From contig JAPLHV010000060.1 of NCBI GenBank assembly GCA_026389455.1, positions 1-33,577 of the forward strand: a DNA stretch of 33,577 nucleotides, in the 5' to 3' direction. The notes under the pieces were generated by a model. The model was given only the letters and a program-made list of their open reading frames with translations, had not been told where the DNA came from and did not search any database. The translations under genes were made by a program, and so were the position numbers. Positions 1 through 24,660 of this stretch are shown here, piece after piece; position 1 is the stretch's first letter, and each line of letters begins with the position of its first letter. This stretch comes from Coprothermobacterota bacterium (GTDB lineage Bacteria; Caldisericota; JANLFM01).

Positions 1-1956
1 CTCGCTGAAAATCCCCCCACTGATGGTGTAGTAAAGATGGCCGGCCAGCAGCGGCATCGGGAACTCCAGGAAGGCGTTGCGCAGATCCCCGCTCCAGGGC
101 CCGCTGGGGGAGATCGGGGCGCCGGTGAGGTAGTTGATGACAGTGCAACTCACCGTCTGAACATCCCCTGGCCGGGTCGACCAAGCGGTCTGTAAGGCGG
201 GAGTGGTGAGATTAGCATAGTTGGTTGGGCCGCCGATGACGGTGTTCGCATAGAATGGGAAAGAGTAGGGCAGCGGATTCCCTTTTGCATCTGGCGCGAC
301 TGCGTAGGCGAAGTTGAGCGCCTGTTCCCCGACGATGCGCACCAGGCGGTAGCCGGGCCAGGACCACATCTCGTTGAATTTCGGGTTCAGCATATTGGGA
401 GCGTCGTTGAACTCAGTGCAAGTGGTGTTGACGAACTTCACTTCCCCTCCGCCGGCGCTCCAGGGAATCGTCCCGTAAGAGTCTGAGTGTTCATGTCCGC
501 TGACCACCAAGGCCACTCGGTACTGCCGTAATAGCTTGATCAGAGCAAGACGCCCGGCGCCTTTCCCGCCGAAGCCAATGCCGAACATCGAGGCATCGTC
601 AAACATCATGCCGGACCCAGCGTCTCGCCAGGGATCGTGATGGATCGCCACCACGCGCATCTTGGCGCTCTGGTGAGCGATCAGGTCATCGCGCAGCCAA
701 GCCAACTGGCCGGTCAGGGCGCTCAATTGAATGGCATCTTCCCTCGCCTGCGACCAGCCGGTCTTGAAGGGATCCCCGCCTCCCAACAGTTGTCCTTGCC
801 ATTTACCGGGAGCTAGGGTCACGTTGGGGATAGCCCAGTGCAGATTGCGTTGAGAAGAACTCCAATCGTTACTGTTTACGGACAGGAAGTGAAAGTCCGG
901 CCCGTAGTCGAAGGAGAAATATTGAGGGCCGAAGAGGTTGCGCCAGGAATCCATGTAGTCCTCTTCAAGTTTGGTGTTGAAGAGGTTGTAGCGAGCATAG
1001 CTGTCATGGTTGCCAGGTGTAATAAAGACCGGCACATCCAGCTTCAAGGTCTCTTGGTAGAACCAATCCATTTCGAAGTAGGGCTCGTAGGCGAGTCCCC
1101 CGAAGATGGTGTTGCGATAGGCCGGAAACTCCGCATAGTTTTGTTTGTAAAGCCACTTCTGGGAGAAATCATAGTCCCCCGTGAAGACGCAGAAGTCCGG
1201 ATTGGTCAAATTCACCTGGGCGATGGCCTTGCTGTAGTAGGCCGCGCCGTAGCCATCCGCCTCGCTGTAGGCGGCGTGTCGGTAGTTCTTGTCTTGCGTG
1301 CTGGCGCCCGGGTATTTCGCCTCCGGCCCCCAAACGTGAATATCGGTCATCTGAACGAAGGTGTAGTCATCTTTGAACTGCGCCACCACGGAGACGGCGT
1401 GCGGCTGGGAGTCGAGCAACCAGACCCCGCCCTGGCGTTTACCGCTGATGCTCAGGTCATAAAGGTCTAAGGGCACATCAGCGGGAATGGTGACCTTCAC
1501 CAGGTAGATGCGGGCATTGGCGTTCCGCGCTTGCGCGTACTCCGGCCACTGGGCGCTGTACCCAACGGTGAACCCGTCGACACGCAGCGTCTTGGTCAGC
1601 GGATAGGCGCCATTGGAGGTTCGCAAGAAGGCAGTGAACTCTTGGTAGACCGGAAACGGCAGGCTCCAGTTCTGGTCGCGGGGATCGTATTCGACGGTCA
1701 ACTGGTCCCCGCAGCGGAGAATAGCCGGGTTGCCGAAGCTGGGGTAGATGACCATTTTGATGCGGTTGCGGTCGATTGGAATGGGCGCTCCATCAAGACT
1801 CCCGGCATCGACCGCCGCGCTTGCGTTATCGCTCGGCGCAACCGGCGCGGCTGCTGGAATCTGGGTCGCCGCGACAGCCCAGCCCGAGATGGGCAGAAGA
1901 CAAACGATGGCAAGGAACCCCGCCAGGATCCCCTGTCGAATCCGATTCTTGTTCAC
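1..1956 (-). CDS. Secreted metallophosphoesterase (3' end outside window)
   Basis: The reverse strand is open from a GTG at 1956 to the window edge, giving 652 codons without a stop; the C-terminus lies outside. The start is supported by an AGGAGG site 8 bases upstream. The N-terminus is a Sec signal peptide (basic NKNRIRQ, hydrophobic core, AVAA cleavage-like site near residue 30). A non-catalytic beta-rich region precedes a calcineurin-like phosphoesterase domain whose metal ligands are all visible: DIH (D205, H207), GD (D261), GNHD (315-318), the H439/H440 pair, and GHEH (487-490). Family knowledge says such enzymes hydrolyse phosphomono- or diesters with a dinuclear metal centre; the substrate cannot be told from sequence. 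An extended -10 (TGTTAGAAT, reverse strand 2029-2021) lies about 65 bases upstream. The identification of the domain is firm; the exact role is not. Confidence 0.9.
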   Translation of the reverse strand, partial: MNKNRIRQGILAGFLAIVCLLPISGWAVAATQIPAAAPVAPSDNASAAVDAGSLDGAPIPIDRNRIKMVIYPSFGNPAILRCGDQLTVEYDPRDQNWSLPFPVYQEFTAFLRTSNGAYPLTKTLRVDGFTVGYSAQWPEYAQARNANARIYLVKVTIPADVPLDLYDLSISGKRQGGVWLLDSQPHAVSVVAQFKDDYTFVQMTDIHVWGPEAKYPGASTQDKNYRHAAYSEADGYGAAYYSKAIAQVNLTNPDFCVFTGDYDFSQKWLYKQNYAEFPAYRNTIFGGLAYEPYFEMDWFYQETLKLDVPVFITPGNHDSYARYNLFNTKLEEDYMDSWRNLFGPQYFSFDYGPDFHFLSVNSNDWSSSQRNLHWAIPNVTLAPGKWQGQLLGGGDPFKTGWSQAREDAIQLSALTGQLAWLRDDLIAHQSAKMRVVAIHHDPWRDAGSGMMFDDASMFGIGFGGKGAGRLALIKLLRQYRVALVVSGHEHSDSYGTIPWSAGGGEVKFVNTTCTEFNDAPNMLNPKFNEMWSWPGYRLVRIVGEQALNFAYAVAPDAKGNPLPYSFPFYANTVIGGPTNYANLTTPALQTAWSTRPGDVQTVSCTVINYLTGAPISPSGPWSGDLRNAFLEFPMPLLAGHLYYTISGGIFSE

Positions 1957-2020
1957 CCGATTACCCTCCTAGCATTGAATTGAAGAGAGCCCGGCGTTCC
2001 GCCGGAGACCGCTCGAGCTT

Positions 2021-2029
2021 ATTCTAACA
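2021..2029 (-). promoter_or_regulatory. Possible extended -10 promoter of the phosphoesterase gene
   Basis: On the reverse strand this reads TGTTAGAAT, an extended -10 (TGn plus TAGAAT). No convincing -35 is present. It would give a leader of roughly 55-60 bases ahead of the GTG at 1956, which contains a CCGGCG/CGCCGG hairpin at 1991-2005. Confidence 0.3.
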
Positions 2030-2191
2030 GATGCAAAACCGGTTCCTCGATCGCTGCAATGGAATAACCTGCAAAAAAGGGGGGCGATGAACACCCACCG
2101 ATCGATGAGGAGCAACTCCTATCCGTTCGGCACCGGACAGCTACTGCACAGGCCAAAAGGACAAGCTAAAAAAAGACAGGAACAAACCCTT

Positions 2192-2213
2192 CAAAAGCGG
2201 AGTGCCTGCCGCT
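2192..2213 (-). terminator. Weak possible terminator after the 27-aa peptide gene
   Basis: Reading on the reverse strand, a 5-bp AGCGG/CCGCT stem with an 8-base loop is followed directly by TTTT. It lies 27 bases past the stop of the small hydrophobic peptide gene. The stem is short, so this is only suggestive. Confidence 0.25.
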
Positions 2214-2239
2214 CATTCTTATGGAGGGCTGGCCGAAGA

Positions 2240-2323
2240 TCAGGGGACGCGAATGGTGAACCAGGCCAGAATCGCGCTACAAATAGCCGCTAGAATCGAC
2301 ATTAGGAGCTCAACGATAGTCAT
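2240..2323 (-). CDS. 27-aa hydrophobic single-span membrane peptide
   Basis: A very short reverse-strand reading frame starts with ATG at 2323 and ends with TGA at 2242-2240. It is preceded by a near-perfect ribosome binding site, AAAGGAGG, 6 bases before the ATG, which is stronger than that of most genes here. The product starts MTIVELLMSILAAI, continues as one hydrophobic helix with one Cys and one Trp (about residues 3-24), and ends in a short basic tail, TIRVP. The pattern resembles type I toxin or holin-like peptides (short, 'MTxxE/xLL' start, single span), but no family is recognised. It lies alone between the phosphoesterase gene and a repeat cluster. The strong RBS plus uninterrupted amphipathic logic is the evidence; a chance frame cannot be excluded. 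Confidence 0.5.
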   Translation of the reverse strand: MTIVELLMSILAAICSAILAWFTIRVP

Positions 2324-2509
2324 CTCTTTCCTCCTTTCTTTTATTCCTCGAGTAATTAAACCACCAAACGACACTCAGGAGGAAGGCTTTGATCCCACTG
2401 TCCGCCCTACTTGATCCGATTTCTACTTTGAGGAGGAGATCATCCCTTCTCGATCTTGGACCAGAGGGCAAAGTCTGTCTTCGAAACAAGGTTCCGACTC
2501 CCCTCTTCC

Positions 2510-2571
2510 GGTTCTTTCTCAAACTGAGTTGGTAAGGCAATCTGAGAGTAAACAAGGTCTCTGGGATCATC
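2510..2571 (-). repeat. 62-bp repeat, left inverted copy flanking the lipoprotein gene
   Basis: Its reverse complement matches 3835-3896 at 58 of 62 positions, and its inner 43 bases match 14255-14297 at about 81%. The outer end is GGTTCTTTCTCAAACTGAG, the exact reverse complement of the other copy's end. Read in the same frame, the copies encode FTLRLPYQLSLRKN, FTLRLPYPLSLRKN and FALRLPFPLGMRKS. Confidence 0.85.
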
Positions 2572-2651
2572 AAGGCTGACGACAACAAGTCAACTTGCGG
2601 CAACTCGACAACCCCCTCTGTGCCAAGATAGACCCGAGACAGCCCGTGCGT

Positions 2652-2672
2652 GGGCGGGTTTGAAACCCGCCC
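2652..2672. repeat. Short palindrome, arms GGGCGGGTTT
   Basis: A perfect 10-bp inverted repeat around a single central G (arms 2652-2661 and 2663-2672). A second copy with a C centre lies at 33418-33438. The arm ends in TTT around the centre like the GGGGACAGATTT palindromes in this window. Confidence 0.85.
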
Positions 2673-2743
2673 CTACGTGAACCACTCCGGCGTAAACCAG
2701 ATCGGGGTCGATGAGACCTTAAAAACAAAAGAGCTTGACCATC

Positions 2744-2772
2744 CCTGGAACCGCGGCGCCCCAGTGCGGCAA
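2744..2772 (-). repeat. 'GCCGCACTGGGGCGCCGCGG' box, copy 1
   Basis: On the reverse strand it reads TTGCCGCACTGGGGCGCCGC followed by GGTTCCAGG. Related copies are at 3717-3744, 3801-3828, 18833-18860 (reverse) and partially at 22829-22848. In one frame it encodes LPHWGAAVPG. Confidence 0.8.
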
Positions 2773-2868
2773 ACCTGAGATCATTCCTAAGGTTAGCACT
2801 GTTCCTGGAACTGTCGCCTTTCCTGGGAGCGCAACACCCAAGAATGCCATGGGCGCCGCGATCCCAGA

Positions 2869-2993
2869 GCCGACAAGACTCTTTAAGATCATCATCACCA
2901 TTGATTAATGGGAAGCTTGACTAAACAGCCTGCGGCAGCAAGTCTTCTCCTGTCGCAGGCTGGTAGGATGCCCACTTGAAATGAAAAGGAACC
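2869..2993 (-). repeat. ~125-bp dispersed repeat, copy 1 (overlaps lipoprotein 3' end)
   Basis: This stretch matches 22723-22825 in the opposite orientation, and its 2993 end matches 33542-33577. Conserved blocks are GCCGACAAGACTCTTTAAGA, the GGGAAGCT block, and GCCCACTTGAAATGA with AAGGAAC. Copy 1 has about 22 extra bases that form an inverted pair, CAGCCTGCGGCAG / CTGTCGCAGGCTG. A fragment, AACAGCCTGCGGCAGCA, recurs near 33161. Confidence 0.8.
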
Positions 2994-3592
2994 CCTCTTC
3001 CTTGGTCAACCCTTGAGGTCACTTCCCCTGACGGAAGGGACGGTGGGTAGAGGGGGATGCGGCGAAACCAGCCGCGCAGGCGCACTGTTCGGTTAGGATC
3101 GGAGAGGGCGACCGCGGTCAACTGAAAGCTGCCGGTAAGAGTCTGATCGTCCCCCACTGATTCAATGCTCAATTCTCCCTCTAGCGCCCCGAAAGCTGTC
3201 CCCTGGGTGTAAAAGAGGGCGGTCACTTCACCGGCGCGGGGGCGACCCGGTTTGTCTGCAAAGGGGCTTAGGCGGATGACACCGGAAGCTAGATCCTTGG
3301 GAAAGTAGAGGGTCAGTCCATCCTCCGGCCCTTCCCCGCCGCCGCGCAGGAGGATCCCCAGCCAGGGGATCAGGTAGATCCGGCGCAAACCAGTCGGAGT
3401 GGCCGGCTCCTCGTCCCGCCCGCTCACTTCCAGTGAGATGCCTTCCCCGACGGCGCTGTAGAAGAAGGCGCCGGCTTCCGGCGAAGCAACCTGGCTGCTC
3501 GAGGGCTGACTGGCCTGGGGAAGCATACAGGAGGTCAGAAGACACACCAGGAGGCTGATACTGAGGAGGCAAAGCTTGCGGTTCACGTTCAT
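2921..3592 (-). CDS. Predicted lipoprotein of unknown function
   Basis: The start is taken at ATG 3592, which directly precedes a typical lipoprotein signal: basic NVNRK, a hydrophobic core, and the lipobox L19-T20-S21-C22. An upstream in-frame ATG exists but would bury the signal peptide. The product is 223 aa and predicted to be anchored to the outer face of the cytoplasmic membrane. After a Ser/Gln/Pro-rich spacer, the body is mostly beta-type sequence without a recognised family. The last ~23 codons (from VPFHFKW to the stop) lie wholly inside the dispersed repeat at 2869-2993, so the natural C-terminus was probably replaced when the repeat arrived. The gene stands alone between inverted 62-bp repeats (2510-2571 and 3835-3896). 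No convincing ribosome binding site is seen. Coding status is likely; function is unknown. Confidence 0.65.
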   Translation of the reverse strand: MNVNRKLCLLSISLLVCLLTSCMLPQASQPSSSQVASPEAGAFFYSAVGEGISLEVSGRDEEPATPTGLRRIYLIPWLGILLRGGGEGPEDGLTLYFPKDLASGVIRLSPFADKPGRPRAGEVTALFYTQGTAFGALEGELSIESVGDDQTLTGSFQLTAVALSDPNRTVRLRGWFRRIPLYPPSLPSGEVTSRVDQGRGVPFHFKWASYQPATGEDLLPQAV

Positions 3593-3716
3593 AGGGATAG
3601 TAGACACCAGATCCTCGATCCCCTCAAGCCGATCGCGCTGCTTACCCCCTCCCTCTGTCGAGTGTCGGCCCTGCGGCGCTATCATGAGCGGTTGGCTTCC
3701 GTCTTGTTACTGTAGA

Positions 3717-3744
3717 TGCCGCACTGGGGCGCCGCGGTCCCAGG
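3717..3744 (+). repeat. 'GCCGCACTGGGGCGCCGCGG' box, copy 2
   Basis: It is identical over 28 bases to the box at 3801-3828, 84 bases downstream, making a direct pair. Between them are degenerate 'GATCCCAGG / AATCCCAAGG / GGTCCCGATCCCAG' units. Confidence 0.85.
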
Positions 3745-3800
3745 AAAGCCGATGATCCCAGGAGCGGTCTCAATCCCAAGGATGGTCCCGATCCCAGATT

Positions 3801-3828
3801 TGCCGCACTGGGGCGCCGCGGTCCCAGG
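3801..3828 (+). repeat. 'GCCGCACTGGGGCGCCGCGG' box, copy 3
   Basis: Direct repeat of 3717-3744. It leads straight into the 62-bp repeat at 3835-3896, so the two modules form one composite unit. Confidence 0.85.
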
Positions 3829-3834
3829 AAAGCC

Positions 3835-3896
3835 GATGGTCCCAGAGACCATGTTTACCCTCAGATTGCCTTACCCACTCAGTTTGAGAAAGAACC
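3835..3896 (+). repeat. 62-bp repeat, right inverted copy flanking the lipoprotein gene
   Basis: Inverted partner of 2510-2571 with 4 differences. It ends CTCAGTTTGAGAAAGAACC and is followed directly by a half REP element (3897-3915). Confidence 0.85.
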
Positions 3897-3915
3897 AATA
3901 AATAAATCTGTCCCC
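3897..3915 (-). repeat. Half REP element, AAATAAATCTGTCCCC
   Basis: Contains AAATAAATCTGTCCCC, the same 16-mer (or its complement) found at 15784-15842, 24315-24330 and 24645-24660. No partner arm is seen nearby. Together with 3593-3896 it fills the gap ahead of the acetyltransferase gene; no gene is seen in that gap. Confidence 0.7.
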
Positions 3916-3974
3916 TTCATACCGTGCTATCATGGAAACGCTCAGATCGATCATAAGAAAAGGAGAGTGCAGAG

Positions 3975-4649
3975 ATGCTGCAGGATGAAGAAGTCCTTCA
4001 GGAAATGATGAACAAGGGGGTACACAATATCCTCCCCTCGCCGCAGACCCGCAGGCTGGTGGACCGCAGGCTGGTTTGGTCCGCCGTCGATGAGGAAATA
4101 TCGGGGGGGTTTCGCCTCCGTGACATGGACTGGGCCAGTCCCAGGGAGATCGAAGAAGTCGCCCGCCTGCACCGCGAAGCCTTCCCCGAGCTCTTCGGCA
4201 GCGTCTACGAAGACATCCTTTTCCCCAGCCGCTGGCCGCGCTGGGCCGAGCAATGGCGCATCTACCGGATCACCGAAGGGGAACAGCAGGCCGCCACTTG
4301 CTTCCTCACCCCCAGCGCGCAGAACATGGCCGTGGAGCTGTCGGTGCTGATCACCGACCCCGCCTTTCGCGGTCGCGGCATCGCCCGCCAATTCACCCGC
4401 GCCATAGACCGGCTGATCAGCGAGAGCGGGGCGGAATACGGCACTGTCCTTTGCGCTACCTTTCATATCGCCACGCAAAAGATCATCGAAGAGCTGGGTT
4501 TCGAGCGCATCGGCGAGTTGCGCGGGTACGTGCTGGCCAACGCCGGCCTGGGACGCTACGCCCGCGACAACGTGGTGATGTATGCCAAGATGTACAACGA
4601 GGCTTGGACGCTCTGCCCAAGCGAGGAACGGCTTACCAAGCCCGGTTAA
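3975..4649 (+). CDS. GNAT-family N-acetyltransferase
   Basis: The product is 224 aa. An AGGAG sits 10 bases before the ATG. The N-terminal ~45 residues precede a GNAT fold: the acetyl-CoA pyrophosphate-binding motif A is visible as LSVLITDPAFRGRGIARQF (R-G-R-G-I-A, around residues 132-138), followed by the later beta-strand region ATQKIIEELGFERIGELRG. Family knowledge: transfer of an acyl group from acyl-CoA to an amine. The substrate is not evident. The gene ends 46 bases before the amino acid decarboxylase on the same strand, so co-transcription is likely, and an amine produced by the decarboxylase is a conceivable substrate (inference only). An extended -10-like TGCTATCAT lies at 3925-3933, about 42 bases upstream. 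Confidence 0.85.
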   Translation: MLQDEEVLQEMMNKGVHNILPSPQTRRLVDRRLVWSAVDEEISGGFRLRDMDWASPREIEEVARLHREAFPELFGSVYEDILFPSRWPRWAEQWRIYRITEGEQQAATCFLTPSAQNMAVELSVLITDPAFRGRGIARQFTRAIDRLISESGAEYGTVLCATFHIATQKIIEELGFERIGELRGYVLANAGLGRYARDNVVMYAKMYNEAWTLCPSEERLTKPG

Positions 4650-4695
4650 CTGGTCTATCTCCAAAATCGAGAGTGGGAGGAAAGGAAGCGCGCCT

Positions 4696-6525
4696 GTGGA
4701 ACACAAAGCGGTAAACGCCCTCTTCCTGGGGCCCAAGTCGGAGAACTACCCCGTCTTCAAACAGATGCTCGGCTACATGATGGATGATTACGCCGAGTGG
4801 CGGCGCGGCTTTCACCCGGATGATCCACTCGTCATTACTCCTTCGGACCAAGAGGAAGAGGGCTTCCAAGCGACCGTGCGGGAGATGCGCCAGGTTTTGG
4901 TGGAGCTGGCCGGCTTGCTGCAGATGACCTCGGTGCCTTGGTTCTCCCCTCGCTACCTGGGGCACATGACTGCCGATACCTTGATGGCGGCCAACTTGGG
5001 TTATATGCTGGCCCTCCTCTACAACCAGAACAATGTCGCTTACGAGGGATCGCCGGGCACCACCGGCCTGGAGCTGGAGACAGGCCGCCAACTGGCGGCG
5101 ATGATGGGGTACGACCCAGCCCAGTCCTGGGGCCACCTCACCGCTGGGGGAACAATCGCCAACTACGAGGGGCTGTGGCTGGCGCGAAACCTGAAGTCGA
5201 TCCCCCACGCTTTGCGCCGGACAGTTCCCGAGTTGGTCGCAGGCCTAGATGATTGGGCGCTTTGGAACCTTTCTCCGGCAAGCATCCTGGATCTGTTGGA
5301 GCAAGCCAAGCAGATGGGCTGCTTCGAGCAGGTGCGCGCGCATTCAGTACGCGGCCAAGGGATCCCGGCAGGCGGGTTGGGCAAGGTGCTGGTTCCGCAG
5401 AGCAAGCACTATTCGTGGGTGAAAGCGATGGATTTGCTCGGCCTGGGCCAGGAGCGCCTCATTCAGATACCAGTGCAGGACGACTACCGCATGGACCTGG
5501 AATCGCTGCGGGTGACACTGGAGGCTCTATTGGAATCCCACACCCCCGTCTTGGCGGTGGTGGCGGTAGTCGGCACTACCGAAGAGGGTGCGGTAGATGG
5601 CGTGTACCGCATCGCCGACCTCCGCGATGAGTTTTCCAAGCGGGGCCTCTCCTTTTGGTTGCACATCGATGCTGCCTATGGCGGTTATGTGCGCAGCGCT
5701 TTCCTCGATGCGCAGGGCTCCTTCATGGATCTCCCCCAGATGCGGGAAGAGCTGCAGGAATCTCTCTCTGACTGGCCTTCAGACCACATCTACCAAGCCT
5801 ACCAGGCCATCTCCCGCTCTGACTCCATCACTGTTGATCCGCACAAACTGGGCTACATCCCCTACCCTGCCGGCGCCTTTCTGGCTCGCGACCGTCGCGT
5901 GGTAGAGCTGATCTCCTACTTCGCCGCCTATGTCTTCGAGGAAGCGGAGGATAACCCCCAACTATTGGGGAGCTACATCCTGGAAGGGTCTAAACCTGGG
6001 GCGGCAGCAGCGGCCGTCTGGGTCGCTCATCGCCTGGTGCCGCTGCACTGGGGGGGTTACGGCCGGCTGATCGGCTCATCTATCGGAGGCGCCCGGCAGT
6101 TTTATCGCTCACTGCTGGAGCAACCCCTCTTCTCCGCCAACGGCCGCAACTACTTGGTCTTGCCGCTGACTGAGCCCGACTTGAACATCGTCGTCTACGC
6201 CTTCAATGAGCAGGGCAACGCCGACCTGGAAGTGATGAACGCGCTCAACCAGCGAATCTGCGAACACGGCTTTCGCCCCACCGGCCCTCTCCTGTCCAGC
6301 GATTTCATCCTCTCCAAGACTTCACTGGAGCAGAAGGAGTACCGGGACACTCCGCTGGCTTTCCTGCGCCGTTTCGGCATCCCCGAGGAGGAATGGCGAC
6401 GGGTCGGCAGCGTCTTCGTACTGCGTTCCTGCGTAGTCACCCCCTTCCTGGCTCGCGGCGCTACTTTCGAGACCTACTGGGGGACCTTTCGCCAGAGCAT
6501 GACCAAAGCGCTGGAGACGCTGTAG
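4696..6525 (+). CDS. PLP-dependent aromatic amino acid decarboxylase (tyrosine decarboxylase-like)
   Basis: The GTG at 4696 is chosen because a GGAGGAAAGGA site lies about 8 bases upstream; an upstream in-frame ATG overlaps the acetyltransferase gene and lacks a site. The product is 609 aa, long for group II decarboxylases but like the bacterial tyrosine decarboxylases of about 620 aa. Typical segments are SPRYLGHMTADTLM (about residues 91-104), NNVAYEGSPGTTGLELE, LTAGGTIANYEG, HIDAAYGGYV (the Asp that pairs with the pyridine nitrogen), and ITVDPHKLGYIPY with the Schiff-base lysine K384. The enzyme should remove CO2 from an aromatic or related L-amino acid, giving an amine, in the cytoplasm. 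Tyrosine versus another substrate is not decided by the sequence. An amino acid ABC transporter follows, separated by 123 bases. Family assignment is firm; substrate is inferred. Confidence 0.85.
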   Translation: MEHKAVNALFLGPKSENYPVFKQMLGYMMDDYAEWRRGFHPDDPLVITPSDQEEEGFQATVREMRQVLVELAGLLQMTSVPWFSPRYLGHMTADTLMAANLGYMLALLYNQNNVAYEGSPGTTGLELETGRQLAAMMGYDPAQSWGHLTAGGTIANYEGLWLARNLKSIPHALRRTVPELVAGLDDWALWNLSPASILDLLEQAKQMGCFEQVRAHSVRGQGIPAGGLGKVLVPQSKHYSWVKAMDLLGLGQERLIQIPVQDDYRMDLESLRVTLEALLESHTPVLAVVAVVGTTEEGAVDGVYRIADLRDEFSKRGLSFWLHIDAAYGGYVRSAFLDAQGSFMDLPQMREELQESLSDWPSDHIYQAYQAISRSDSITVDPHKLGYIPYPAGAFLARDRRVVELISYFAAYVFEEAEDNPQLLGSYILEGSKPGAAAAAVWVAHRLVPLHWGGYGRLIGSSIGGARQFYRSLLEQPLFSANGRNYLVLPLTEPDLNIVVYAFNEQGNADLEVMNALNQRICEHGFRPTGPLLSSDFILSKTSLEQKEYRDTPLAFLRRFGIPEEEWRRVGSVFVLRSCVVTPFLARGATFETYWGTFRQSMTKALETL

Positions 6526-13661: not shown

Positions 13662-13898
13662 TCATCCTGAGGCAGCCCCTCTCATTATCCTGAGCGCCTT
13701 TTTGTCATCCTTAGCATTTTGTCATCCTTAGCATTTTGTCATCCTGAGCGTTTTGTCATCCTGAGCCCCTTGTCATCCTGAGCCCCTTGTCATCCTGAGC
13801 GTTTTGTCATCCTGAGCGTTTTGTCATCCTGAGCCCCTTGTCATCCTGAGCGTTTTGTCATCCTGAGCCCCTTGTCATCCTGAGCGAAGCGAAGGATC
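13662..13898 (+). repeat. 17-bp tandem repeat array (GTCATCCTGAGCnnnnT)
   Basis: Ten exact-period 17-base units run from 13704 to 13873, preceded by two irregular units (13662-13703). Three variants occur: A GTCATCCTTAGCATTTT, B GTCATCCTGAGCGTTTT, C GTCATCCTGAGCCCCTT, in the order A A B C C B B C B C. The array ends at 13874 with a full-length unit continuing GAAGCGAAGGATCTC, the familiar dispersed repeat seen in many Chloroflexota genomes. A diverged single copy lies at 33258-33282. There are no spacers, so it is not a CRISPR array. Confidence 0.9.
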
Positions 13899-15780: not shown

Positions 15781-15845
15781 AAAGGGGACAGATTTATTTT
15801 TGAATAGAGGTTCCCTTGGTGTGAATAAATAAATCTGTCCCCTTT
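15781..15845. repeat. REP hairpin with GGGGACAGATTTATTT arms
   Basis: Perfect 19-bp arms AAAGGGGACAGATTTATTT (15781-15799) and their complement (15827-15845) around a 27-base loop. The right arm runs into TTTTT, so in RNA it could act as a terminator between the XRE gene and glyQ. Confidence 0.85.
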
Positions 15846-23009: not shown

Positions 23010-24335
23010 ATGAATGAAAACAACTGGCAAACCAAGTGGTCCAAGGAACAGATCAAGGCCATGCTCTTAGAGCAGTCCCAGGCATTTTGGAAACGGGATA
23101 CCGGCGTGGTTCGAGAGAAACTCCAGCAACTGCTGAAAGCGGCCGCATTGCCCCACGCGGTGATCATTTCCGGTCTGCGCCGAGTTGGAAAGTCAACCTT
23201 GTTGGCACAGATCGCCCATCATCTGGGAGAGAAGTCCTTTTACTACCTTAACTTTGAAGATGAGCGTTTCCTTGGTTTCCAGGCTGACGACGCGAATTCC
23301 CTTTTTCAGGCGCTGGTAGAAATATTCGGGGAGAAAACTGTCTTCATGATCGATGAAATCCAGAACGTCGTCGGCTGGGAACACTTCGTCCGCCGCTTTA
23401 TGGACATGGGGTTCAAGTTCTACATCACCGGCTCCAACGCCTCGTTGCTCAGCGATGAATTGGGAAGCCGATTGACTGGGCGTTACTTGCCCGTCGAGTT
23501 GCTGCCGTTTTCCTTTAACGAGTTTCTCACGTTCAAGGGATATGAGGCGCCCGATCTCAATCGCTTGACCACGGCTGATCAATCACTCCTGCAGCGCCGA
23601 TTGGACGAATACCTCGTGCAGGGCGGCATTCCCGAACCGGTCAAGTATCCCGATCTTCCGTTGCACCGAGTGCTCTACGACGACATTTTGTACCGTGACA
23701 TTGCTGCGCGCCATCACATCGAGGATCTACGGACGTTGAAAGAACTGGCCTTCTGCCTGATCAGCAACCCGGGGGGCAAGATCTCTTTCAATAAACTAAA
23801 AAGACAACTTATGCTGGGCAGCGTCAACACAGTGAAGAACTATATCGCTTACTTGGAAGCCGGTTGGCTGCTATTTGCCATCAACGTCTATGATTACTCC
23901 GTAAAGCGGCAGCAGATTGCTCCGAAAAAGATCTACGCCATAGACACAGGTCTGGTCCGCACCGTGGGATTTGCTTTCTCCCCCAATCGCGGCAGATTGC
24001 TAGAGAATCTTGTTTTCCTTGCCTTGCGGCGCCAGGGACGGGATATCTACTATCTTACCCTTAAAAACGGCTATGAGGTAGATTTTTATCTACCCCAGGC
24101 GGGTCTGTTGATCCAGGTCGCTCAAAATTTGCATCAGGAGCAGACAAGGGAAAGGGAAATCAGGGCGTTGACGACAGCCATGTCGTCCTTGAACTTGCAG
24201 GAGGGGTTGATTCTAACAGAAAATGGAGAAGATTCCCTTCAGTCAGGCAATATGACCATTCATGTACAACCAATAGCCTCGTGGCTGCTAAAGGAAATTG
24301 GGGTGAACCAAAAAGGGGACAGATTTATTTATTGA
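23010..24335 (+). CDS. AAA ATPase with C-terminal DUF4143 domain
   Basis: The 441-aa product has Walker A GLRRVGKST (residues 55-63), Walker B VFMIDEIQNVVGWE, sensor GSNASLLSDELGSRLTGRY, and the spacer LLPFSFNEFL typical of the AAA_14/DUF4143 family. The C-terminal domain has LENLVFLALRRQGRDIYYL and YEVDFYLPQAGLLIQVAQN, a nuclease-fold-like pattern. Function in this family is uncertain; members are often mobile or accessory. It interrupts the usual dgt-dnaG order and has AT-richer codon use than its neighbours, which suggests transfer. Its last residues, KGDRFIY, and its stop are encoded by a REP arm (24315-24335). It appears leaderless. Confidence 0.88.
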   Translation: MNENNWQTKWSKEQIKAMLLEQSQAFWKRDTGVVREKLQQLLKAAALPHAVIISGLRRVGKSTLLAQIAHHLGEKSFYYLNFEDERFLGFQADDANSLFQALVEIFGEKTVFMIDEIQNVVGWEHFVRRFMDMGFKFYITGSNASLLSDELGSRLTGRYLPVELLPFSFNEFLTFKGYEAPDLNRLTTADQSLLQRRLDEYLVQGGIPEPVKYPDLPLHRVLYDDILYRDIAARHHIEDLRTLKELAFCLISNPGGKISFNKLKRQLMLGSVNTVKNYIAYLEAGWLLFAINVYDYSVKRQQIAPKKIYAIDTGLVRTVGFAFSPNRGRLLENLVFLALRRQGRDIYYLTLKNGYEVDFYLPQAGLLIQVAQNLHQEQTREREIRALTTAMSSLNLQEGLILTENGEDSLQSGNMTIHVQPIASWLLKEIGVNQKGDRFIY

Positions 24336-24660
24336 GAACAAGCAAGCCGTTTTCCTCGCGGATCCCGCCGGCTGCCGATGGTTCAGCTATGGTGTAAAGA
24401 TCGGCAACCGTAAAGGAGAATGGCTGGATGATAATTCCTGCACCCTTGCCTTGCCGACAGCGCGAAAAAACAAGCGGAGAGCTATGCAGCTTGGAAATAA
24501 GAAACCATTGTGGCGGGAGAATGGGAGCTGATCCGACTATCGCTCCAACGGGGACAGTTGACTGGCAGCCTGTCAATGAACGCCATAATGGAGCTCCCAC
24601 TTTGTGGAGGAAATCGAAAAGAAAACCGAAAGACGGGTGTGGGAAAATAAATCTGTCCCC
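24315..24660. mobile_element. 346-bp MITE-like element with 16-bp terminal inverted repeats
   Basis: The left end is GGGGACAGATTTATTT (24315-24330); the right end is its exact complement AAATAAATCTGTCCCC (24645-24660). The interior has no convincing gene; a 92-codon reverse frame (24600-24325) ends inside the left terminus and is unrecognised. No target-site duplication is apparent. The element fills the gap between the ATPase and dnaG. A REP pair that drifted apart or an IS-derived remnant are alternatives. Confidence 0.55.

What the first reader, a model, noticed from the sequence alone, without database searches (positions are those of the whole stretch)
2240..2323. Hidden 27-aa membrane peptide with a near-perfect ribosome binding site
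A tiny reverse-strand frame codes for a single hydrophobic helix with a basic tail and has AAAGGAGG at ideal spacing. It resembles type I toxin or holin-like peptides in shape, yet matches no family I recognise. It lies next to a repeat cluster. A weak hairpin plus TTTT follows it.
Basis: partly seen in the sequence, partly recalled or inferred. Interest (0 to 1): 0.55.

Follow-up and report, generated by a model that had tools for sequence, protein, structure and literature searches.

The report
Orphan 27-residue putative membrane peptide
A very short reading frame with a strong ribosome-binding site could make a tiny membrane-spanning peptide in an uncultured bacterium, but no relative of it was found, so it is at best a candidate small membrane protein and may be chance.

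Summary
The frame is real: window 2323-2240, minus strand, MTIVELLMSILAAICSAILAWFTIRVP*, with AAAGGAGG at 2337-2330, six bases before ATG. Two details fail: there is no basic tail (one Arg, one Glu), and the hairpin-plus-T does not pass a terminator scan on that strand. Such a hydrophobic frame with a site of at least 7 matched bases appears once in 18.8 Mb of shuffled own-genome DNA, about 0.002 per window; the cut-offs were chosen afterwards and shuffles understate the real background. No significant homologue was found in its own genome, 385 other genomes, phage or plasmid records, Pfam, NCBIfam, PHROGs, PADLOC or PDB. The one family genome with the flanking phosphoesterase has an IS110-type transposase upstream. 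Type I toxin hallmarks are mostly missing: no Hol_Tox match over cut-off, no convincing antisense promoter, ordinary overall folding. One lead remains: a perfect 8-nt complement upstream that could mask the ribosome site. Best reading: an orphan small ORF, perhaps translated into a single-pass membrane peptide.

The parts
2240..2323 (-). 27-codon ORF, MTIVELLMSILAAICSAILAWFTIRVP*, single predicted hydrophobic helix
   Evidence: translation; hydropathy; single match in own genome
2330..2337 (-). Shine-Dalgarno-like AAAGGAGG, 6-nt spacer to ATG
   Evidence: sequence; rarity with a hydrophobic ORF
2377..2384 (-). TTCCTCCT, perfect 8-nt complement of AGGAGGAA (2335-2328), 41 nt upstream: possible hairpin that would mask the ribosome-binding site
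   Evidence: found; in 6 of 6 constructs GGAGG is paired with it at probability 0.75-0.97, in the construct (2170-2400) about 0.04; such a complement arises in 16 of 5000 shuffles
2196..2213 (-). weak hairpin (5-bp stem, 8-nt loop) followed by TTT; not a convincing terminator
   Evidence: sequence; listed only for the plus strand; 33-nt piece folds at -7.8 kcal/mol
2082..2096 (-). second weak terminator-like hairpin before CCCTTTTTTG, between peptide and phosphoesterase
   Evidence: 8 sites in 1900-4000 against 2.9 +/- 1.5 in shuffles
1..1956 (-). downstream gene on the same strand: metallophosphoesterase (3' end outside the window), GTG start, AGGAGG upstream
   Evidence: translation; PF00149 E 3.3e-13; 84% identical over residues 1-387 in related genome G003
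2507..2995 (.). dispersed repeat block on the peptide's upstream side
3678..3923 (.). partly inverted partner of the dispersed repeat, ending with the AAATAAATCTGTCCCC motif (3900-3915)

Best explanation
An orphan small ORF in an intergenic region of an uncultured bacterium (probably Coprothermobacterota), probably translated into a 27-residue single-pass membrane peptide. Shown: frame, ribosome-binding site, hydrophobicity, single copy in this draft genome. Inferred: it is transcribed from the intergenic DNA and translated from AAAGGAGG; the product inserts after translation into the cytoplasmic membrane, as the equally long E. coli YohP does through SRP and SecYEG or YidC; it then acts, if at all, by side-on contact with a larger membrane protein or by mildly perturbing the membrane. 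Translation may be held low by a hairpin between the site and an 8-nt complement upstream (predicted only). Its restriction to one genome suggests a young or fast-changing gene.
For: Frame and ribosome-binding site read directly. The combination occurs once in 18.76 Mb of shuffled DNA at 7 matched bases and hydropathy 2.4. Clear sites also stand before some other starts printed (12694 AAGGAGG, GNAT AAAAGGAG, phosphoesterase AGGAGG), not before most. The frames that overlap or neighbour it, 2310-2603 and six others, have no Pfam match. No listed repeat match covers it. Post-translational insertion of a 27-residue membrane protein is documented for YohP (PMC7549839, abstract and passages).
Against: No homologue: only itself in its own genome; nothing below E 0.17 in 100 other genomes; nothing below E 0.05 in 385 others (best 0.056, inside a 514-residue frame; the sets overlap); no match in phage or plasmid records at E<=10 (no positive control run). 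G003 has no match to it and a transposase where it would lie. The one minus-strand promoter-like site, 2593-2566, 9 of 12, is what chance gives (1 found, 0.8 expected). Strict chance frames still come at 0.14 per genome in shuffles, and real DNA exceeds shuffles. No selection test is possible with one sequence.
Confidence: 0.5

Rival explanations
1. Chance: a short untranslated or non-functional frame in intergenic DNA that happens to carry a purine-rich GGAGG and a hydrophobic run.
For: No conservation where tested. Looser frames of this sort are expected: 2.5 per genome at 6 matched bases and hydropathy 2.0 in shuffles, and real DNA exceeds shuffles at every cut-off tried. Overall folding energy is ordinary.
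Against: At the observed values (8 bases, 2.4) shuffles give 0 in 18.76 Mb; ATG with full AAAGGAGG at 6-nt spacing is close to ideal.
Confidence: 0.33
2. Type I toxin: the peptide depolarises or permeabilises the cell's own membrane and is held down by a masked ribosome-binding site and an antisense RNA read from the plus strand.
For: Size and single hydrophobic helix fit the general description (PMC8309996 and PMC11264685, passages). A perfect 8-nt complement of the ribosome site lies at 2384-2377 (16 of 5000 shuffles have one in the 60 nt upstream); in 6 of 6 constructs GGAGG is paired with it at probability 0.75-0.97, leaving 0.6-4.1% unpaired; masking of this kind is recalled for some type I toxin messages. 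A poor plus-strand promoter-like site (8 of 12) starts at 2145.
Against: No C-terminal basic residues; no Hol_Tox match over cut-off in 61 genomes and none at E<=1 in the own genome; no Pfam family at E<=10. No plus-strand promoter-like site. The degree of masking is only borderline: 11 to 33 of 150 shuffled-flank controls are as masked in the six constructs, and 56% of 300 in the construct 2170-2400, where the complement takes only about 4%. Folding z-scores between -1.3 and +1.5. Single copy.
Confidence: 0.12
3. Truncated first helix of a larger membrane protein, for instance of the 88-residue small membrane protein of genus g9 in the same phylum, left as a remnant.
For: Residues 3-19 align with its N-terminal helix at 53% identity; 0 of 5000 shuffled peptides score as high.
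Against: That pair was picked from a search in which its E-value was 0.18-0.38 per genome, so the shuffle count is biased. The 88-residue protein has strong matches (E<1e-30) in 9 of 61 genomes, all g9, none in the window's family; the own genome's best hit is elsewhere at E 0.10. No clear remnant of its other helices was found in the window (next best E 6.7).
Confidence: 0.03
4. Translational leader or attenuator peptide for the downstream phosphoesterase.
For: Same strand, 283 bases between its stop and the phosphoesterase start.
Against: In G003 an IS110-type transposase lies in the place of the region; two weak hairpins in the gap; no codon run of the attenuator kind by eye; no Rfam match at E<=5 in 1-5000.
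Confidence: 0.02

Closest known systems
E. coli YohP-type small membrane proteins (27 residues, single helix)
   Same: length, single hydrophobic helix, no soluble domain
   Different: sequences not compared; YohP is shown to be expressed and inserted (PMC7549839, abstract and passages), this peptide is only predicted
Hol_Tox / TxpA-like type I toxins (PF16935)
   Same: short hydrophobic peptide; N-terminal look M-[ST]-x-x-E-x-L-M recalled, from no call
   Different: no match in the own genome at E<=1 and none over cut-off in 61 genomes; no charged tail; no antisense RNA shown
88-residue membrane protein conserved in genus g9 of the same phylum (loci L002-L004, L008, L136-L141)
   Same: 15-17 residues of the first helix, 47-53% identical
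   Different: three times longer, no strong match in the window's family, resemblance not significant in the search
De novo hydrophobic small proteins selected from random libraries (PMC10065794, abstract and outline seen)
   Same: hydrophobic, at most 50 residues, no natural homologue
   Different: those have a selected activity; here none is known

Membership tests
Type I toxin (membrane-associated) | under 60 residues with a hydrophobic helix | tested here: met
   27 aa, best 18-residue hydropathy 2.44; definition from PMC11264685 and PMC8309996 passages
Type I toxin (membrane-associated) | antisense or trans small RNA that pairs with the message | tested here: inconclusive
   no plus-strand promoter-like site, only 8-of-12 sites at 2145 and 2317; no Rfam match in 1-5000; no RNA data available
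Type I toxin (membrane-associated) | positive charges at the C-terminus (usual, not universal) | tested here: not met
   one Arg, one Glu in all
Type I toxin (membrane-associated) | ribosome-binding site masked in the message (recalled, not universal) | tested here: inconclusive
   GGAGG 0.6-4.1% unpaired in six constructs but 11-33 of 150 shuffled controls as low; 17% in another construct, 56% of 300 controls as low
Type I toxin (membrane-associated) | toxic when overproduced | not testable with these tools
   needs an expression assay
Hol_Tox (PF16935) | match over the curated cut-off of 23.3 bits | tested here: not met
   hmmscan no family at E<=10; genome search 0 of 61 over cut-off, none in own genome at E<=1; control over cut-off in 2 of 14
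Small single-pass membrane protein | short ORF with one hydrophobic helix and a usable ribosome-binding site | tested here: met
Small single-pass membrane protein | conserved frame or detected product | tested here: not met
   no significant homologue; product not testable here

The most novel reading that the evidence does not exclude
A newly born, lineage-specific membrane peptide gene, arisen in intergenic DNA next to a large repeat cluster of a Coprothermobacterota bacterium, kept silent by a hairpin over its ribosome-binding site and acting, when released, as a membrane-disturbing toxin or membrane-protein modulator of a kind not described before in that phylum.
Probability: 0.1. Interest if true: 0.45.

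Novelty: new member of a known kind. Interest (0 to 1): 0.18.

Why it matters
If translated, it is one more orphan membrane micro-protein, in a sparsely studied phylum, that standard gene calling would likely pass over. That bears on how many such peptides genomes hold and how they arise, but a single unconserved candidate changes little by itself.

Tried and rejected
Type I toxin with antisense RNA: looked for promoters on both strands, mRNA structure and toxin families. Kept as a minor rival. On re-checking I found that I had dismissed the upstream complement TTCCTCCT (2384-2377) from one construct only (about 4% of the pairing). In six further constructs GGAGG pairs with it at probability 0.75-0.97, while the overall masking stays borderline against shuffles (11, 16, 16, 27, 31 and 33 of 150). 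I raised the toxin rival from 0.10 to 0.12 for this, lowered chance from 0.35 to 0.33, and trimmed the remnant and leader rivals by 0.01 each.

Resemblance to the g9 88-residue protein: 0 of 5000 shuffles reached the score, but the pair was selected by a search with per-genome E 0.18-0.38 and the protein has no strong match in the window's family. Rejected as homology.

DNA matches near the ribosome-binding site in G051, G019 and G018 are short purine tracts; the frames after the AAAGGAGG sites seen there (one in L016, one in L020) are not this peptide, and those genomes have no peptide match.

Synteny: the GNAT gene has no match in any of 4 family genomes (no positive control); the decarboxylase is in 1 of 4, on another contig with other neighbours. 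Upstream of the distant phosphoesterase relatives L053 and L055 (same strand, 1200 bases) the hydrophobic frames listed have no GGAGG site.

Full report
What is there. On the minus strand, 2323-2240, an ATG-started frame of 27 codons reads MTIVELLMSILAAICSAILAWFTIRVP and ends in TGA. AAAGGAGG lies at 2337-2330, six bases from the ATG. The frame is open upstream to a GTG at 2374 (44 codons), but that start has no ribosome-binding site and its extra KERRKE is the site itself read as codons. The hairpin downstream has a 5-bp stem and an 8-nt loop; the terminator scan lists it for the plus strand only, and the region has more such sites than shuffles (8 found, 2.9 +/- 1.5).

Where it is. The genome search places the window in a 2.63-Mb draft genome, 89% complete, 263 contigs. 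A same-family genome, G003, has a 3,691-base contig that appears to be the one listed in genome contigs as a Coprothermobacterota bacterium from Lac Pavin (same length, same 84% match at 2530-3690). I take the host to be Coprothermobacterota; this is an inference. The peptide lies between a metallophosphoesterase (1956 leftward, PF00149 E 3.3e-13) and a frame at 2921-3685 with no Pfam family over cut-off that looks like a lipoprotein by eye. Its stop is 283 bases from the phosphoesterase start, on the same strand. Seven frames overlapping or near it have no Pfam match (2310-2603, six).

Is it more than chance? I compared the window plus 40 stretches of the same genome (468,922 bases, about 18% of the assembly; 20 of the 40 were chosen for carrying copies of the neighbouring repeats, so the sample is not random) with 40 dinucleotide-preserving shuffles of it (18,756,880 bases). 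Frames of 18-60 codons with at least 7 matched site bases at suitable spacing and hydropathy of at least 2.4: one real (this one), one shuffled, that is 0.0018 per window or 0.14 per genome. At 8 matched bases the shuffles hold none at hydropathy 2.0 or more and two at 1.6 or more. At 6 bases and 2.0 they give 2.5 per genome. An earlier run on 186,959 bases is similar.

Is it conserved? Own genome: only itself. 101 genomes including its own: 11 with a match at E<=1, the ten others at E 0.18-0.72. 386 genomes including its own: one other at E<=0.1 (0.056, inside a 514-residue frame). The two sets overlap. Phages and plasmids: no match at E<=10. Viral contigs: no exact match to three patterns. 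Pfam, NCBIfam, PADLOC, PDB: none at E<=10; PHROGs: one unknown family at E 0.26. A 27-residue hydrophobic query is a weak probe and I ran no positive control for it. Of 4 relatives in the family, 1 has the phosphoesterase (G003, 84% over 387 residues). There, DNA similarity stops about 75 bases upstream of the gene (window 1930-2030), and a 401-residue IS110-type transposase (PF01548 E 3.5e-39, PF02371 E 1.2e-25) occupies the upstream DNA. This is one comparison disrupted by a transposon, so absence there says little about age.

Is it a type I toxin? Size and shape fit; definitions come from passages of PMC8309996 and PMC11264685. PF16935 Hol_Tox reaches cut-off in 0 of 61 genomes and has no match at E<=1 in the own genome, while the control is over cut-off in 2 of 14 genomes. 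Plus-strand promoter candidates are poor (none; 8 of 12 at 2145 and 2317). Folding energies are ordinary (eight z-scores from -1.3 to +1.5). The ribosome-binding site is predicted mostly paired. In the construct 2170-2400 GGAGG is 17% unpaired, held mainly by CTCCT inside the frame, and 56% of 300 shuffled-flank controls are at or below that. In six other constructs (3' ends 2082, 2190 or 2240; 5' ends 2385-2450) it is 0.6-4.1% unpaired and pairs at probability 0.75-0.97 with TTCCTCCT at 2384-2377, a perfect complement of AGGAGGAA that arises in 16 of 5000 local shuffles; 11 to 33 of 150 controls are as masked. So a masking hairpin is possible and depends on where the transcript begins and ends. 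The toxin reading has shape and this hairpin for it, and lacks a basic tail, a family match and an antisense RNA.

Closest sequence. Residues 3-19 resemble the first helix of an 88-residue membrane protein of genus g9 in the same phylum (47-53% identity). No shuffled peptide of 5000 scored as high, but the pair came out of a search at E 0.18-0.38. The longer protein has strong matches in 9 of 61 genomes, all g9, and none in the window's family. I treat it as convergence of hydrophobic sequence.

The neighbourhood. Eight Y1-type transposase matches (PF01797) are in the genome, and three (C22, C50, C153) lie beside places in the capped motif list, as REP-associated tyrosine transposases do beside their repeats (recalled; papers seen in a listing only). 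Apart from the self-match, no listed repeat match starts below window 2506, so the peptide is next to the repeats and not part of them.

Verdict. About one chance in two that the peptide is made as a small membrane protein with an unknown partner, about one in three that it is a chance frame, and about one in eight that it is a type I toxin. Ordinary until expression or strain-level conservation is shown. A literature search for Coprothermobacterota with toxin-antitoxin gave one paper, seen in the listing only.

Noticed in passing
window 2507-2995 and 3678-3923: Large dispersed repeat family: 212 matches in the own genome for window 1960-3970; the two window blocks are partly inverted copies of each other.
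   Followed up: partly
window 3900-3915 (also 15784-15799, 15827-15842, 24315-24330, 24645-24660): Motif AAATAAATCTGTCCCC occurs 184 times (85 forward, 99 reverse, up to one mismatch) in the genome, 0 for the reversed control; it lies beside three of eight Y1 transposase matches (C22, C50, C153), which looks like a REP/RAYT-type system.
   Followed up: partly
window 2921-2995: The last codons of the frame 2921-3685 (ending LLPQAV) lie in a repeat hairpin (2926-2962). Frames with a similar CCRRLF stretch are listed in L076 (G003) in and near the decarboxylase, so the repeat may reach into or end genes.
   Followed up: no
window 13700-13885: Tandem array of a 17-bp unit TTTTGTCATCCTGAGCC, about 11 copies; similar words occur in L024 (G003) at about 860-930.
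   Followed up: no
L002-L004, L008, L136-L141: An 88-residue membrane protein conserved in genus g9 of the phylum (strong matches in 9 of 61 genomes), without a strong match in the window's family.
   Followed up: partly
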